From the NCBI GenBank assembly GCA_002215645.1, contig NGFI01000005.1:1-64000 (forward strand): a DNA stretch of 64,000 bases. Direction: 5' to 3'. The notes beneath the pieces are model-generated. The model searched no databases. It had not been told where the DNA came from and saw only the letters and a program-made list of their open reading frames with translations. The position numbers and the translations under genes are program-made. This DNA comes from Gemmatimonadetes bacterium 2013_60CM_65_52 (lineage in GTDB: Bacteria > Gemmatimonadota > Gemmatimonadetes > Gemmatimonadales > Gemmatimonadaceae). Positions 8,971 to 60,739 of this stretch are shown in pieces (position 1 is the stretch's first letter; the number at the start of each line of letters is the position of its first letter).

Positions 8971-10284
8971 ATGAACCGACCCCTTCGCTCGCTCTGCCTT
9001 GCCGCCACGCTCGCCGCGCCGCTTGCCCCGCAGGCCACCGCCGGCGCGCAAACATCCGACTCCGTTCCGGCGGTGCGCCGCGACGCGAGGCGATGGTATC
9101 AGGACGCCAAGTTCGGAATGTTCATCCACTGGGGCGTCTACAGTCAGCTCGCGCAGGGCGAGTGGGTAATGCAGCAGCGGGAAATACCGGTCCCCAAGTA
9201 CGAGTGGCTGGCGTCCGCGTTCAATCCGATTCGCTTCGACGCACGCGAGTGGGTCACGCTCGCCAAGGCCGCCGGCGTCCGGTACATCACGATCACGTCA
9301 CGGCACCACGATGGATTCTCGATGTTCAAGTCCGCGACCTCGCCGTACAACATCGTGGACTACACGCCGTTCAAGCGCGATCCACTCGCGGAGCTGGCGG
9401 AGGAATGCCGGCGGCAGGGGATCAAGCTGTTCTTCTACTACTCGCAGTTGGACTGGCATCATCCGGACTACTGGCCGCGCGGAGGAACCGGCACGAAGGT
9501 CGGCCGGCCGGAGCGAGGCGACTGGAATCGGTACCTCGATTACATGGACAGCCAGCTCACGGAGCTGCTGACCAACTACGGCCCCCTCGGCGGCATCTGG
9601 TTCGACGGCATGTGGGACAAGCCGACGGCGGACTGGCGCCTCGCGTCCACATACGCGCTCATCCACCGGCTGCAACCAGCGGCGCTCATCGTGCCCAATC
9701 ACCACAAGGCGCCGCTGCCGGGCGAGGACGTCCAGACCTTCGAGCAGGATCTGCCGGGCGCCAACACGGCCGGATTCAACACGAAGGAAATCGGCTCGTT
9801 GCCGATGGAAACGTCGCTGACGATGAACAACTCGTGGGGCTTCAACATCACCGACGCGCGGTGGAAGTCCTCACGCGACCTGATCCACTATCTGGTGAAG
9901 GCAGCTGGAAACAATGCGAATCTGCTCCTCAACATCGGGCCGCGGCCCGACGGCACGATTCAGCCCGAAGCTGTGGAGCGTCTGCGCGAGCTCGGTGTGT
10001 GGCTCGGCTCGCACGGCGCGTCGATCTACGGGACGCGCGGCGGCCCGGTGTCGCCGAGAGATTGGGGTGTCACGACGCAGCGCGGCGACACGGTGTTCGT
10101 TCACGTCCTTCAGTGGTCGGACCGCCTGCTTTCTCTTCCGCCGCTCGGGGGCCGCGTGACTCGCGCGACGCTGCTCGGCACAGGCACGCCGGTGGAGTTT
10201 CGGCAATCCGATGCGGGGGTCACGCTCACCGTGCCGCCGAGCGACGAGGTGGATCGCGTCATCGTGCTGACGCTGGTCAATTGA
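8971..10284 (+). CDS. Alpha-L-fucosidase, GH29 family, exported
   Basis: This retaining glycosidase should release alpha-L-fucose from glycans outside the cytoplasm. It has 437 aa. A signal peptide (about residues 1-26, ending near ATAGAQ) precedes the GH29 barrel with KFGMFIHWG (47-55), SRHHDGF (110-116), YYSQLDWHHPDYW and GGIWFDGMWD. The aspartate in WFDG (Asp212) corresponds to the family nucleophile. A short beta-sandwich domain follows (after residue 350). The length fits bacterial GH29A enzymes. A TAATTT box lies only 6 nt before the ATG and no ribosome-binding site is visible, so a leaderless mRNA is possible. The stop codon touches an inverted repeat. Confidence 0.93.
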   Translation: MNRPLRSLCLAATLAAPLAPQATAGAQTSDSVPAVRRDARRWYQDAKFGMFIHWGVYSQLAQGEWVMQQREIPVPKYEWLASAFNPIRFDAREWVTLAKAAGVRYITITSRHHDGFSMFKSATSPYNIVDYTPFKRDPLAELAEECRRQGIKLFFYYSQLDWHHPDYWPRGGTGTKVGRPERGDWNRYLDYMDSQLTELLTNYGPLGGIWFDGMWDKPTADWRLASTYALIHRLQPAALIVPNHHKAPLPGEDVQTFEQDLPGANTAGFNTKEIGSLPMETSLTMNNSWGFNITDARWKSSRDLIHYLVKAAGNNANLLLNIGPRPDGTIQPEAVERLRELGVWLGSHGASIYGTRGGPVSPRDWGVTTQRGDTVFVHVLQWSDRLLSLPPLGGRVTRATLLGTGTPVEFRQSDAGVTLTVPPSDEVDRVIVLTLVN

Positions 10285-10369
10285 CCACCGAGGGCACAGA
10301 GATCACAGAGAACAACAAAATAATACAAGGCTTTTGTAGCTGCTCTGTGCTCTCTGTGTCCTCTGTGGT
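10284..10369. repeat. Inverted repeat with 27-nt arms (ACAGAG-rich)
   Basis: The left arm (10284-10310, ACCACCGAGGGCACAGAG...) pairs with the right arm (10343-10369) at 24 of 27 positions, across a 32-nt A/T-richer loop. It starts at the last base of the fucosidase stop codon and separates two convergent genes, so it may end transcription from both sides. Similar CACAGAG-rich palindromes are recurrent intergenic elements in several environmental phyla (from memory). No other copy was seen in this window. Confidence 0.8.
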
Positions 10370-10407
10370 ATTTGGCAGTTCGCTCCTGTGGTAATTGACA
10401 GTGAGCG

Positions 10408-43804: not shown

Positions 43805-44332
43805 GTGCCGCGATACGTCGCGTTCCTGCGCGCCATCAACGTGGGCGGCCGCGTCGTGAAGATGGATCGGCTGCGCGCGCTGTTCATGGAACTGGACCTG
43901 GCGAATCCAGAGACGTTCATCGCCAGCGGCAATGTGCTGTTCGAGAGCAAGGTCAAAGCGCTTGCCGGACTGGAGCGACGCATCGAGGCGCATCTCGCCT
44001 CGGCGCTCGGATACGAAGTGGCCACCTTTGTACGCCAGCACGACTCACTCTTGTCGCTGCTGGACGGCCACCCCTACGAGTCGCACGCGGATGACGGCCA
44101 CACGCTGCAAATCGGCTTTCTCAAGGGGACGCCAGGGCCGAGCCAGCTCGAGGGGCTGAAGGCGCTGGAGACCCCGACCGACGAATTTCACCTCCGTGAC
44201 CGGTCGCTGTACTGGTTGCTCCGAATGAAATTCAACGAGACGAAGATCACGACAGCGAAACTCGAGCGCGTGCTCGGCGGTCCGGTCACGTTTCGGAACA
44301 TCACGTCGATCAGGCGCCTGGTAGAGAGGTAG
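43805..44332 (+). CDS. DUF1697 protein
   Basis: This is a 175-aa protein of the DUF1697 family, seen in the opening VPRYVAFLRAINVGGRVVKMDRLRALF and in FIASGNVLFES. The fold is thought to be an alpha/beta two-domain structure; no activity is known. No signal peptide. It lies 2 nt after PPK2 and closes the plus-strand unit. The GTG at 43805 fits the family start; a GTG at 43799 overlaps the previous stop. Its stop codon is part of the GTAGGACGGTAGG repeat. Confidence 0.88.
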   Translation: MPRYVAFLRAINVGGRVVKMDRLRALFMELDLANPETFIASGNVLFESKVKALAGLERRIEAHLASALGYEVATFVRQHDSLLSLLDGHPYESHADDGHTLQIGFLKGTPGPSQLEGLKALETPTDEFHLRDRSLYWLLRMKFNETKITTAKLERVLGGPVTFRNITSIRRLVER

Positions 44333-44352
44333 GACGGTAGGACAGCGGGCCT
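44329..44352. repeat. Single arm of a GTAGGACGG-type repeat
   Basis: GTAGGACGGTAGGACAG begins at the stop codon of the DUF1697 gene and ends at the stop of the convergent phosphatase gene. The same word opens the hairpin at 48106 and, as a reverse complement, closes it at 48181. It may be a remnant or half-copy of a mobile intergenic element. Confidence 0.6.
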
Positions 44353-47033: not shown

Positions 47034-48101
47034 GTGCGCGCCAGTACGGTGGTGCTGTCGTTCCTCGTCGCGGTGTGCGCGCACGCCGCAGTCTGCGTCG
47101 GCCAGGCGCCATCATCCGCCGACTCCGACACCTTCACGGTTCCCAAGCTCTTCAGGTCCACGTCGCCGGTGGCGGTCACGATCACCGCGAACTTCAAGCA
47201 GGTGCGCAACGACCGCGGCGAGAACGCACCGTACCACGCAGCGACGATCACATACACCGACAGCGGTGGAAAGCCCGTCATCGTTCCGCTTCGGGTGAAG
47301 ACGCACGGCATCTGGCGGCTCAAGCACTGTGAGTTTCCACCCCTTCGCCTGAGCTTCTCCGACAAGACCACGAAGCACACGCTGTTTCATGGACTCGGCC
47401 GCCCGAAGTTCGTGAACACCTGTCGCGATCAGGACCGGTACGAGCAGCTCGTACTGCAAGAGTATCAGCTCTATCGCATTTACCAGCTGCTCACGCCGCA
47501 GAGTCATCACGCGCGGCTGCTTCGCGTCACGTACGCCGACAGCGCGACGGGCAAGGTGGACGCGACGCGGTACGGCTTCCTGTTCGAGGATCCGGACCAG
47601 CTCGCGACGCGGCTCGGTGGACAGCTCGTCCGCATCAAGGGCGCCGGTCCCGAGGACATCGATCATCGAGCCGGCGCACTCGTCTACGCGTTCCAATACC
47701 TCATCGGCAACACCGACTTCTCGTTCAACGGGCTGCACAATGGGGAACTCGTGCAGCGGGCCGATGGATCGCCGGTGATCCCGATCGCGTACGACTTCGA
47801 CTTCTCGGGCGCGGTGAATGCGCCCTATGCCACCGTTGATCCCAAGCTCTCCATCCGCTCGGTCCGTGAGCGGCTCTTTCGCGGCTATTGCGCGTTCGAG
47901 GACGAGTACGAGGGAGCGTTCAGTGCGGTCCGCGCCAGGAAGAACGCCATCATGGCGCTCTATACGGATGAGGTCGGCCGGCTCCTCGATCAGCGGACGG
48001 CGAAGGATGCGCTCACCTACTTCGCCGAATTCTTCGAGGACACGGGCACGTACGACAGCGTGAAGCGCAATGTGCTCGGTTCATGCGTGAAGAGCCGGTA
48101 G
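47034..48101 (+). CDS. CotH-like exported protein
   Basis: This is a 355-aa protein with a signal peptide (STVVLSFLVAVCAHAAVCVGQ). The body resembles CotH-type spore-coat kinases: PLRVKTHGIWRLKHCEFPPLRLSFS, TLFHGLGRPKFVNTCRD, QEYQLYRIYQLLTP, and IPIAYDFDFSGAVNAPYA. CotH kinases phosphorylate secreted proteins, here perhaps in the periplasm. The link to the kinase is inferred from the layout because the active-site residues cannot be set with certainty. GTG at 47034 lies 2 nt after the DUF4956 stop; the longer frame from 46884 is an overlap shadow. The stop is followed by an inverted repeat. Confidence 0.75.
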   Translation: MRASTVVLSFLVAVCAHAAVCVGQAPSSADSDTFTVPKLFRSTSPVAVTITANFKQVRNDRGENAPYHAATITYTDSGGKPVIVPLRVKTHGIWRLKHCEFPPLRLSFSDKTTKHTLFHGLGRPKFVNTCRDQDRYEQLVLQEYQLYRIYQLLTPQSHHARLLRVTYADSATGKVDATRYGFLFEDPDQLATRLGGQLVRIKGAGPEDIDHRAGALVYAFQYLIGNTDFSFNGLHNGELVQRADGSPVIPIAYDFDFSGAVNAPYATVDPKLSIRSVRERLFRGYCAFEDEYEGAFSAVRARKNAIMALYTDEVGRLLDQRTAKDALTYFAEFFEDTGTYDSVKRNVLGSCVKSR

Positions 48102-48105
48102 TGCA

Positions 48106-48181
48106 GTAGGACGGTAGGTCCGTGGGACGGCAAACAAGGAACTGTTTTCCGTCCTACCGGCCTACTGTCCTACCGTCCTAC
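48106..48181. repeat. Inverted repeat (GTAGGACGGTAGG / CCTACCGTCCTAC), terminator-like
   Basis: Outer arms GTAGGACGGTAGG (48106-48118) and CCTACCGTCCTAC (48169-48181) are perfect 13-bp complements. Inner segments GGACGG (48125-48130) and CCGTCC (48149-48154) can also pair, giving a long hairpin. It lies 5 nt after the CotH-like stop and probably ends that transcript. The outer word also appears at 44329. Similar GTAGGACGG words occur in intergenic repeats of other genomes (from memory). Confidence 0.75.
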
Positions 48182-58298: not shown

Positions 58299-58922
58299 GT
58301 GCTGCGCTACCTGCTGGACCTCGCCGGCGTCGCGGTGTTCGCCATCAGCGGAGCGCTCGCCGCCGGACGCCGCGGGCTCGATCTCATCGGCGTGATCGTG
58401 CTCGGCGCGGTGACCGCCGTGGGAGGCGGCACCATTCGGGACGTGCTCCTGGCACGACATCCGATCTTCTGGCTCGCCGATCCCGCGTATCTCATCGTCA
58501 TCGTCGCGAGCTCGTTGCTGACGGTCGCATACGCCCGGTGGCGGCCGGCTCCGCATGCAGCGCTGCTCGTGGCCGACGCGCTCGGGCTCTCGCTCTTCAG
58601 CATCGTCGGGGCGCAGATTGCGGAATCGCAGGGCATGCCCGCCGTAAGCGGCATTTTGCTCGGCACCGTGACCGGCACGGCCGGCGGCGTCGTGCGCGAC
58701 GTCCTCAGTGCCGAGGTGCCGCTGGTGCTCCGCAGCGGCAATCTTTACGCGACGGCGGCCATCGCCGGAACGTCCACGTACTTCGTGCTCGGCAGCATGG
58801 GTGCTTCTCGCGTGATTGCGGCGTACGTTGGAATGGTCGTGTGCGCCGCACTCCGCGCTGCGTCCATCTGGTGGGGCCTCAAGCTGCCGGTGTTCGAGCT
58901 TGGCAACGGAGCTTCGAAATGA
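58299..58922 (+). CDS. TRIC-family (UPF0126) cation channel-like membrane protein
   Basis: This is a 207-aa membrane protein with seven hydrophobic segments in the UPF0126/TRIC layout: two repeats each opening with a Gly-rich helix and a charged turn (GGGTIRDVLLARHPIFWL and GGVVRDVLSAEVPLVLR). The bacterial family is a trimeric intracellular-cation-type channel. Ion preference is unknown. GTG start at 58299. The stop overlaps the next gene start (ATGA), so the DinB gene is translationally coupled. Confidence 0.92.
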   Translation: MLRYLLDLAGVAVFAISGALAAGRRGLDLIGVIVLGAVTAVGGGTIRDVLLARHPIFWLADPAYLIVIVASSLLTVAYARWRPAPHAALLVADALGLSLFSIVGAQIAESQGMPAVSGILLGTVTGTAGGVVRDVLSAEVPLVLRSGNLYATAAIAGTSTYFVLGSMGASRVIAAYVGMVVCAALRAASIWWGLKLPVFELGNGASK

Positions 58923-59467
58923 CGACGAACTCTCCAGCGCGGCGCGACGCCACCGTCGCTGATCTACCGCTCGAATTCATCGATCGTTCGCGCCGCTATC
59001 TCGTGCGCGAATACCCGGCAAAGATCGAGCGCTGTCTCGCCGCGCTTCCGCCGGGCACGCTGTGGGCACGGTCGGATACGGAGTCCAACAGCGTCGGTAA
59101 CCTGCTGCTGCATCTCGAGGGAAACGTCCGCCAGTGGATCGTGAGCAGCGTGGGAGGTGTGCCGGATGAACGGCACCGCGCGGCGGAGTTCGCAGCCACC
59201 GGCGGCACGGATGCGCAGAGCCTGTTTGCCGCCTTACGCGGGACGCTCGTCGACGCCGATGCAGTGCTTGCGCGGCTGACGCCGGACGACCTCGCGACTC
59301 GGCGCGTGATTCAGGACCGCGACGTGAGCGTGTTCGAGGCCATCTACCACGTGGTGGAGCATTTTGCGATGCACACGGGGCAGATCATTCTGCTGACCAA
59401 ATTGCATGCGCCGGGCACGATCCAGTTCTACGATGACGCAGCGGGGGCAGCCAAGCCACTGTACTGA
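58919..59467 (+). CDS. DinB-family (DUF1572-like) protein
   Basis: This is a 182-aa cytoplasmic DinB-type helical bundle. Blocks are ADLPLEFIDRSRRYLVREYPAKIERCL, SDTESNSVGNLLLHLEGNVRQWIVS and VIYHVVEHFAMHTGQIILLTKLH (seen as AIYHVVEHFAMHTGQII), which carry the family His residues (LLHLEG, EHF, MHTGQ). The metal-binding triad therefore appears complete. The start at 58919 overlaps the TRIC stop (ATGA). It is the fourth DinB-like gene in the window. It is followed by a palindromic repeat. Confidence 0.9.
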   Translation: MTTNSPARRDATVADLPLEFIDRSRRYLVREYPAKIERCLAALPPGTLWARSDTESNSVGNLLLHLEGNVRQWIVSSVGGVPDERHRAAEFAATGGTDAQSLFAALRGTLVDADAVLARLTPDDLATRRVIQDRDVSVFEAIYHVVEHFAMHTGQIILLTKLHAPGTIQFYDDAAGAAKPLY

Positions 59468-59473
59468 GCTACC

Positions 59474-59712
59474 AAGAACAGTACTCAGTACGAAGGCCAG
59501 TATCCGGAACTCGGCACTCGGTATTACGACGTATCCAGTACGGGGCGCGGAGGCCTCGCGTGACGCCTTTGCCGTTTGTACCGGATACGTTGTTTTAGCG
59601 AACTCGGTATGACGACGTATCCAGTACGGGGCGCGGAGGCCTCGCGTGACGCCTTTGCCGTTTGTACCGGATACGTCGTTTTACCGAGTGCCGGATACAG
59701 GGTACTGTTCTT
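59474..59712. repeat. Nested palindromic element with internal tandem 86-bp duplication
   Basis: The 239-bp element is bounded by exact 11-bp inverted ends, AAGAACAGTAC (59474-59484) and GTACTGTTCTT (59702-59712). Inside lie two tandem 86-bp units, 59516-59601 and 59602-59687, with 3 differences. Each unit is itself an inverted repeat (ACGACGTATCC near its left, GGATACGT near its right) around a G/C core. The gap between convergent stops at 59467 and 59729 is filled by it. It encodes no credible protein; open frames in it arise from the repeat. It resembles REP/MITE-type elements. Confidence 0.85.
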
Positions 59713-59728
59713 CCTACTGTTGTTGGTC

Positions 59729-60664
59729 TCAGTAGATGTATACCCGTGTTCCCACCGGCACATTCTCGTACAGCCACTCGATGTCCTCGTCGCGCAGCCG
59801 CACGCACCCGTGCGTCACGGCGGCGCCGATCGATTTCGCGTATGGCGTGCCGTGCAGCAGGTAGCCGTTGCCGAGGTCGAGCCGGAAGTGACCGAGCTCG
59901 CCCTGAATGCGGCGGTGCTTCGTGCCCTGTGGTGGAATGAACAGCGTGTTGTCGAAGACGATGTGCTCGTCGTAGATCATGGGCACGAACTCATCCCCCC
60001 CGGGCCGAATGATGCCCACCTCGTCGCCCTGCGTCAGCAGCTTCGTGCCGTCTTTCAGCTTTACGACTCGGCCGCGCTCGAGCTGCGCGAGCTTGAGGCC
60101 GTGCTCGAGCGCCACCTCGGCGAAATGCCACTCGGGCGGCGTCCACACCGGATCGCGATCCTTGCGTAGCACCGTGCGTACGCCGCGAGGCGTGGTGAAG
60201 CGCCAGATCTTGCCGCCGTACTCCAGTGTCGCGTTCATCGCGGTGGCGACCGTGGCGGTGCGTAGCGTATCCTCGCCGTCGATGACGCGCAGCTGTCGCC
60301 CGAACAGATCGACGATGACGCGGTAGCCCTCGGACTTCTCGGCACTCGTACGCGCGCTCTCCCACGCCAACCGGTCCTTGCGCGACTTGAACGACCGCTC
60401 GGACGACGCCGCGGCCGTGGCTGTGACTTCGGTGCCGGCCGTCTCGGATGTGCTGCCGGAGGATGCGTCGTCGCTCCGCCGGGCAATCTTGCGCAGCAAC
60501 GACACAAACCAATTATGGCCTCCGCGCTGTGCCTCGGCGGAGTCCGCTCGCGTGGTGACGCTGCTACTATCGAGGTTTCGTGCCTGGACTTGCGCTCGCG
60601 CCGGGGCGGCGTACAAAGCGAACAGAAGCGCTGCCGCCGCCAGTCGTGTCATCGTCAATCGCAT
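59729..60664 (-). CDS. L,D-transpeptidase with long N-terminal region
   Basis: This is a 311-aa exported YkuD-family enzyme. A signal peptide (LTMTRLAAAALLFALYAAPARAQ) precedes a Ser/Thr-rich linker, then a YkuD domain with IVDLFGRQLRVIDGEDTLRTATVATAMN, and HGTPYAKSIGAAVTHGCVRLRDEDIE, with the catalytic Cys in THGC. The linker is longer than in the other two L,D-transpeptidases. It would form 3-3 cross-links or attach outer-membrane lipoproteins. Start 60664 (second ATG 60652 possible). Its stop is 17 bp from the palindromic element. Confidence 0.93.
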   Translation of the reverse strand: MRLTMTRLAAAALLFALYAAPARAQVQARNLDSSSVTTRADSAEAQRGGHNWFVSLLRKIARRSDDASSGSTSETAGTEVTATAAASSERSFKSRKDRLAWESARTSAEKSEGYRVIVDLFGRQLRVIDGEDTLRTATVATAMNATLEYGGKIWRFTTPRGVRTVLRKDRDPVWTPPEWHFAEVALEHGLKLAQLERGRVVKLKDGTKLLTQGDEVGIIRPGGDEFVPMIYDEHIVFDNTLFIPPQGTKHRRIQGELGHFRLDLGNGYLLHGTPYAKSIGAAVTHGCVRLRDEDIEWLYENVPVGTRVYIY

Positions 60665-60739
60665 CACTACGAAAAATACACTGCGGAGGGCGTGAAGGTT
60701 CACGTCCTCCGCAGTCTTGCACGACTCGGGCCGGACTTT

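What the first reader, a model, noticed from the sequence alone, without database searches (positions are those of the whole stretch)
59474..59712. 239-bp nested palindrome with tandem 86-bp units between convergent genes
Exact 11-bp terminal inverted repeats bound two 86-bp units (3 differences), each internally palindromic. It exactly fills the gap between two convergent stops. It looks like a non-coding mobile or REP-type element that has duplicated in tandem, and could also act as a bidirectional terminator.
Basis: seen in the sequence. Interest (0 to 1): 0.65.

Follow-up and report, generated by a model that had tools for sequence, protein, structure and literature searches.

The report
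Species-private heptad-armed intergenic palindrome family
The odd palindrome is one of at least 41 copies of a small non-coding repeat scattered through this one bacterial species, sitting mostly where neighbouring genes end; sister species carry different repeats of the same design, in two tested cases at the very same place, which suggests a fast-changing class of gene-end elements that spreads by an unknown route.

Summary
At 59474-59712, between convergent DinB/DUF1572 and L,D-transpeptidase genes, lies a palindrome with exact 11-bp ends and an 86-bp tandem duplication. It is not unique: at least 41 copies (62 arms) occur in this 4.2-Mb genome. None occurs in the 393 other class genomes searched, GTDB contigs or IMG/VR. 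The basic unit is a 55-57-nt arm of imperfect heptads (GTAYYCK), usually as an inverted pair (125-234 nt) or singly beside a second repeat. The 86-bp unit is a private duplication of this copy's inner hairpin. Congeners show the gap as 36-50 bp (empty) in five species; two others hold unrelated palindromes there, each a multicopy family in its own genome. Copies avoid promoter gaps and favour convergent ones (15 of 41; about 4-5 expected). No REP-type Y1 transposase is found in any of the four carrier genomes, and no target-site duplications. Best reading: a lineage-specific, MITE/BOX/SPRITE-like palindromic repeat, tolerated at gene 3' ends, where its RNA hairpin probably terminates transcription or caps transcripts from both sides. 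Dispersal mechanism unknown. Closest precedent: paired tandem hepta-/octanucleotide sites in Geobacter metallireducens (PMC2700814). New variant of a known kind.

The parts
59468..59728 (.). intergenic gap between convergent stops that holds the element
   Evidence: the same gap is 36-50 bp in five congeners
59474..59712 (.). element as reported, bounded by exact 11-bp terminal inverted repeats
59486..59541 (+). left arm: member of the dispersed 55-57-nt heptad-repeat arm family
   Evidence: nhmmer E 3.6e-15
59664..59719 (-). right arm, inverted member of the same arm family; conserved end continues as TGTTG to about 59724
   Evidence: nhmmer E 1e-17; 92% to consensus over 59664-59725
59516..59601 (+). 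first 86-bp tandem unit (inner hairpin: inner part of left arm, spacer, inner part of right arm)
59602..59687 (+). second 86-bp tandem unit, 97% identical; this duplication is found only in this copy
58919..59467 (+). DUF1572/DinB-superfamily gene, converging on the element
   Evidence: PF07609 2e-15, PF12867 2e-10
59729..60703 (-). L,D-transpeptidase (YkuD) gene, converging on the element
   Evidence: PF03734 1.9e-20

Best explanation
It is one full-length copy of a dispersed, species-private family of non-coding palindromic elements. SHOWN: each arm is a run of imperfect 7-nt words (GTAYYCK) of 55-57 nt; two arms face each other around a spacer; at least 41 copies lie in intergenic space, enriched between convergent genes; the congeneric site is empty in five species; in this copy the inner hairpin was later duplicated in tandem (86 bp). 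INFERRED: the whole module copies itself or is copied into new gaps as a unit, by a process that leaves no target-site duplication and does not use a Y1/RAYT transposase, and survives mainly at gene 3' ends because it does no harm there. When transcribed from either side it folds into a long hairpin that most likely stops or blunts read-through between the two convergent genes and protects mRNA 3' ends. It thus works like a BOX/SPRITE-type mobile 3'-end hairpin.
For: Copies: 92 BLAST matches in the own genome, 62 arms, 41 elements, 63 arm-pattern matches against 0 for the reversed control. Species-private: 0 in the 393 other genomes of the class, 0 exact in GTDB contigs and IMG/VR; the only BLAST hit in 40 relatives lies inside a reading frame that reads like a response regulator. 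Insertion: the syntenic gap is 36-50 bp in G001, G004, G006, G007 and G009, against 261 bp here; a second copy (L004) has short sites in G001, G006 and G009. Heptads: period-7 autocorrelation p 0.0005 and 0.0015. Context: 15 convergent, 23 co-directional, 3 divergent; expected from gap bp 3.7, 27.0, 10.3 (p 2e-9) and from gene pairs 4.9, 31.4, 4.7 (p 7e-6). Folding: z as low as -16, median best z -6 over 18 full copies. Y1 transposase absent.
Against: No canonical U-run follows the hairpin; the only terminator-like hit is no better than shuffles (1 against 0.6 expected). Arms of one element are no more alike than arms of different elements (0.756 against 0.776, p 0.94), so there is no sign of compensatory pairing selection or arm conversion. 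No TSD and no mobiliser identified, so transposition itself is inferred, not shown. Gene calls are from a home-made codon model. Congeners are only 67-79% identical in the genes, so exact junctions cannot be read.
Confidence: 0.7

Rival explanations
1. A REP/REPIN element mobilised in trans by a RAYT (Y1) transposase.
For: Intergenic, palindromic, inverted dimers with a spacer; the right end carries a GTAG (CAGTAG), as GTAG-REPs do (PMC3733652).
Against: PF01797 is absent from this genome (97% complete) and from G003, G005 and G008, which carry analogous families, while 14 of 41 relatives have it. The 57-nt arm is not a stable hairpin by itself (about -11 to -13 kcal/mol). The left end often has CAGTACCCGGAGG, not GTAG.
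Confidence: 0.06
2. A classical MITE with terminal inverted repeats, a remnant of a DDE transposon.
For: Short, non-coding, imperfect terminal inverted repeats, multicopy, intergenic, empty sites in relatives.
Against: No target-site duplication (mean longest match 2.06 against 2.03 when flanks are shuffled, p 0.51). No parent element was met, but DDE transposases were not searched genome-wide. Half of the copies have only one arm, often joined to another repeat.
Confidence: 0.2
3. Paired binding sites of a nucleoid or global regulator protein; the heptads are protein contacts, as proposed for IHF/HU-type sites in Geobacter metallireducens.
For: Very similar anatomy in G. metallireducens: tandem hepta-/octanucleotide repeats in pairs on opposite strands at variable distance (PMC2700814). 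In the arms the G, A and C of each heptad are 98-100% conserved and variation is restricted to C/T, C/T and G/T positions, with TT at the two Y positions 1 time against 18.5 expected: a word grammar as a protein site might impose.
Against: Copies avoid divergent (promoter) gaps (3 of 41) and favour convergent ones, unlike promoter-regulatory sites. Words turn over completely between congeners.
Confidence: 0.2
4. Not mobile: locally grown quasi-palindromes made by slippage and template switching at each terminator independently.
For: Tandem duplications are common (86 bp here, also in L003, L006, L031, L038) and arms are periodic.
Against: The same words, ends and spacer recur at 41 unlinked places in one genome and nowhere in sister species, so the unit was dispersed.
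Confidence: 0.05

Closest known systems
Geobacter metallireducens 'putative global regulator binding sites' classes 1-3 (Aklujkar et al. 2009, PMC2700814)
   Same: Multicopy, largely species-unique intergenic families of 3-5 tandem hepta-/octanucleotide repeats, mostly in pairs on opposite strands at variable distance.
   Different: Different words; no bias to gene 3' ends, empty sites or re-use of one gap by different families is described in the passages read; there the authors propose IHF/HU binding.
BOX / RUP / SPRITE elements of Streptococcus pneumoniae (MITE review PMC10969869)
   Same: Small non-coding intergenic palindromes, modular and found clustered and inserted in one another (compare arm A joined to repeat B here); SPRITE looks like a Rho-independent terminator.
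   Different: No sequence relation tested; the heptad build-up is not described there; no autonomous partner found here.
REP / REPIN / BIME families with RAYTs (PMC3116915, PMC3733652, PMC2817692)
   Same: Species-specific vocabularies, inverted pairs, gene-end positions.
   Different: No Y1 transposase in the carriers; the single arm is not a stable stem-loop.
ERIC/IRU (127-bp imperfect palindromes)
   Same: Size, imperfect palindrome, intergenic and transcribed-region position (own knowledge; PMC2759123 seen as an abstract only).
   Different: Not species-private; no heptad arms; no sequence comparison made here.

Membership tests
REP/REPIN (RAYT-mobilised) | RAYT / Y1 transposase gene in the genome | tested here: not met
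   PF01797 absent in G000, G003, G005 and G008; rings in 14 of 41 relatives and in the controls
REP/REPIN (RAYT-mobilised) | each repeat unit is a short stem-loop of about 20-40 bp with GTAG/GGAG at its foot | tested here: not met
   single arm folds at only -11 to -13 kcal/mol without one dominant stem; GTAG only at right ends
MITE | short, non-coding, multicopy, terminal inverted repeats | tested here: met
MITE | target-site duplication | tested here: not met
   no excess over shuffled flanks at 18 full copies; caveat: exact edges uncertain by a few nt
MITE | parent autonomous transposon with the same ends | not tested
   only Y1 and Y2 (uninformative because its controls were silent) were searched
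BOX/RUP/SPRITE-like modular intergenic palindromes | modular combinations and nesting with other small repeats | tested here: met
   single A arms lie next to repeat B at about 12 loci; B-A-B' nesting in L009 and L032
Intrinsic terminator | G+C-rich hairpin followed by a T-run | tested here: inconclusive
   very strong hairpin but no clear T-run
Geobacter paired tandem-heptad/octad sites | tandem 7- or 8-nt words in inverted pairs, multicopy | tested here: met
   period 7, p 0.0005-0.0015; inverted pairs; a second family with 8-nt words
Geobacter paired tandem-heptad/octad sites | sequence relationship to the Geobacter families | not tested
   the published words (GTTGCTYN, TCTCCGTS, MTYCTGA) differ by eye from GTAYYCK; no comparison was run

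The most novel reading that the evidence does not exclude
These palindromes are one instance of a general, unnamed class of gene-end elements: hairpins whose arms are built from 7-8-nt words around a core, with a different vocabulary in nearly every species of the genus. They disperse through the genome without a transposase of the REP type and repeatedly occupy the same gene-end gaps, so that one gap holds unrelated families in different species.
Probability: 0.35. Interest if true: 0.75.

Novelty: new variant of a known kind. Interest (0 to 1): 0.5.

Why it matters
Small palindromic repeats shape transcript ends and genome plasticity, but their origin and mode of spread are mostly known only for RAYT-linked REPs. 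Here sister species carry unrelated families of the same design, some in the same gap, with no RAYT. That makes a testable case for another way of spreading short palindromes, and for gene 3' ends as recurrent landing or survival sites.

Tried and rejected
Rfam gave no family (the one E 0.17 MIR918 hit is chance). REP/RAYT origin rejected. TSD scan negative. Arm-to-arm covariation negative. A relative's apparent hit (G014) proved to lie inside a coding reading frame. The IS91-type Y2 search cannot be read because its controls did not ring. A larger transposon bearing these arms was looked for in one cluster of three copies (C4, L035): no transposase was evident among the reading frames. The third slot tested for re-use (L034) was uninformative because synteny is lost. 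A text search for the related words in papers gave nothing useful. Co-directional copies are closer to the 3' end (median 22 against 74 nt), but not significantly (p 0.19).

Full report
What is there. The palindrome at 59474-59712 is real, with exact 11-bp ends and two 86-bp units differing at three positions. It fills all but 6 and 16 bp of the 261-bp gap between a convergent DUF1572/DinB-superfamily gene and an L,D-transpeptidase gene. As RNA it folds at -152.7 kcal/mol, z -13, and z -10 on the other strand.

It is a family. A search of the window's own genome gave 92 matches. A profile built from them finds 62 arms in the fetched loci, grouped into 41 elements. The unit is a 55-57-nt arm, consensus CAGTAGTGAAGACCAGTACCCGGTATCCGGCACTCGGTAAAACGACGTATCCGGTAC. 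About half of the elements have two arms in inverted orientation with a spacer (125-234 nt in most). The others have one arm, about 12 of them next to a second repeat, B. The 86-bp unit of the finding is the inner hairpin of an ordinary two-arm element, duplicated in tandem only in this copy; other copies show other duplications (L003, L038).

It is species-private. A 25-nt arm pattern occurs 63 times in this genome (0 for the reversed control) and in none of the 393 other genomes of the class. It has no exact match in GTDB contigs or IMG/VR (the window's own records may be left out there). In 40 relatives BLAST found only one short match, inside a coding frame.

It was inserted. The same gene pair is syntenic in congeners. 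In G001, G004, G006, G007 and G009 the gap between the conserved gene parts is only 36-50 bp. A second copy (L004) likewise has short sites in G001, G006 and G009.

The same gap holds other families in other species. In G003 the gap holds a palindrome of CGTGAAC heptads around a perfect terminator-like core. In G005 it holds a palindrome of roughly 400 bp built from CACGGAT-like words. Both are multicopy in their own genomes and absent from ours; G008 shares the G003 family. At the second slot G005 again holds a member of its own family (membership by BLAST). With these numbers slot re-use is suggestive, not proven: 3 of the 11 congeneric slots examined are occupied, and no formal expectation was computed.

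The design is common in the genus. Arms here have period 7 (p 0.0005 and 0.0015), in G003 period 7 (p<0.0005), in G005 period 21 (p 0.02, weak). A 396-kb sample of G004 contains further families, with ACGGTTTG, GGGGAGT and similar words around terminator-like cores. In 484 kb of the own genome a detector of inverted repeats with 7/8-nt periodic arms finds 9 elements, all intergenic, against 1 and 1 in Markov controls. Six of them belong to a second own family with 8-nt GTAGGWCG words; the word pattern occurs 37 times in the genome against 2 for the control. The detector found none in the G009, G001 and G005 samples. It misses gapped palindromes and longer periods, so this is not evidence of absence.

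Where it sits. Of 41 elements 15 are between convergent, 23 between co-directional and 3 between divergent genes. From intergenic bases one expects 3.7, 27.0 and 10.3 (p 2e-9), from gene pairs 4.9, 31.4 and 4.7 (p 7e-6). The gene calls come from a simple codon model, good enough for this contrast. The pattern fits survival at gene 3' ends and avoidance of promoters.

How it may work. The hairpin is strong in most of the 18 full copies on both strands (median best z -6). Flanks are pyrimidine-rich but without a T-run. A bidirectional 3'-end hairpin or terminator is therefore likely but untested. The arms of one element are not more alike than arms of different elements, so pairing has not visibly been maintained by compensation.

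An unexplained word grammar. In each heptad G, A and C are 98-100% conserved; positions 4 and 5 are C/T and position 7 mostly G/T. The combination TT at positions 4-5 occurs once against 18.5 expected. Left arms tend to use GCATCC where right arms use GCACTC. This looks like replacement of whole words or selection on words rather than free mutation, and it would suit a binding protein.

How it spreads. No TSD. No Y1/RAYT gene in the four carriers, while it is detected in 14 of 41 relatives. Other transposases were not searched genome-wide. The mobiliser is unknown.

Known relatives. The best precedent found is the Geobacter metallireducens genome paper (PMC2700814): species-unique families of tandem hepta- and octanucleotide repeats in inverted pairs, interpreted there as possible IHF/HU sites. 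BOX, RUP and SPRITE are functional parallels (PMC10969869). The GTAG/CGTC-REP survey (PMC3733652) notes that the CGTC class also lacks a dedicated transposase.

Noticed in passing
window 48096-48181, also 44329-44341; L225 9632-9701 and 11487-11548; L252 12892-12945: A second own family of palindromes with 8-nt GTAGGWCG words; 37 matches of GTAGGNCGGTAGG in the genome against 2 for the control.
   Followed up: partly
window 10280-10370: Palindrome with CACAGAG-type repeat arms between convergent genes (CCACCGAGGGCACAGAGATCACAGAGAA ... CTCTGTGCTCTCTGTGTCCTCTGTGG).
   Followed up: no
L027, L005, L010, L037, L017, L012, L041, L019, L009, L035, L014, L032: Repeat family B, about 96 nt with its own GC-rich hairpin, usually next to a single arm of the present family; in L009 and L032 the arm lies between two inverted B pieces.
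   Followed up: partly
L007 about 1575-1660 and L011 about 1565-1615: The spacers of two elements carry tandem copies of a 21-22-nt sequence AAACCGGGTTGATGGGTGAGC, in opposite orientation.
   Followed up: no
arm alignment, heptads at columns 16-36: Word grammar: only C/T, C/T and G/T vary within heptads, and TT is avoided (1 against 18.5 expected).
   Followed up: partly
L192 7191, L195 7522, L199 14565, L200 5215, L203 6615, L191 581, L204 5887 (G004): A sister species has several further periodic-arm palindrome families around GC-rich terminator-like cores.
   Followed up: partly
L102 (G005), about 400-bp insert between the two gene ends: The G005 insert is itself nested: outer CACGGAT-type arms, an inner inverted repeat (TCGATTCTTGAATCCTAGCC / GGCTAGAATCACGGAATCGAAGAATC) and a perfect hairpin AAGGCGGCGAGACA ... 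TGTCTCGCCGCCTT.
   Followed up: no
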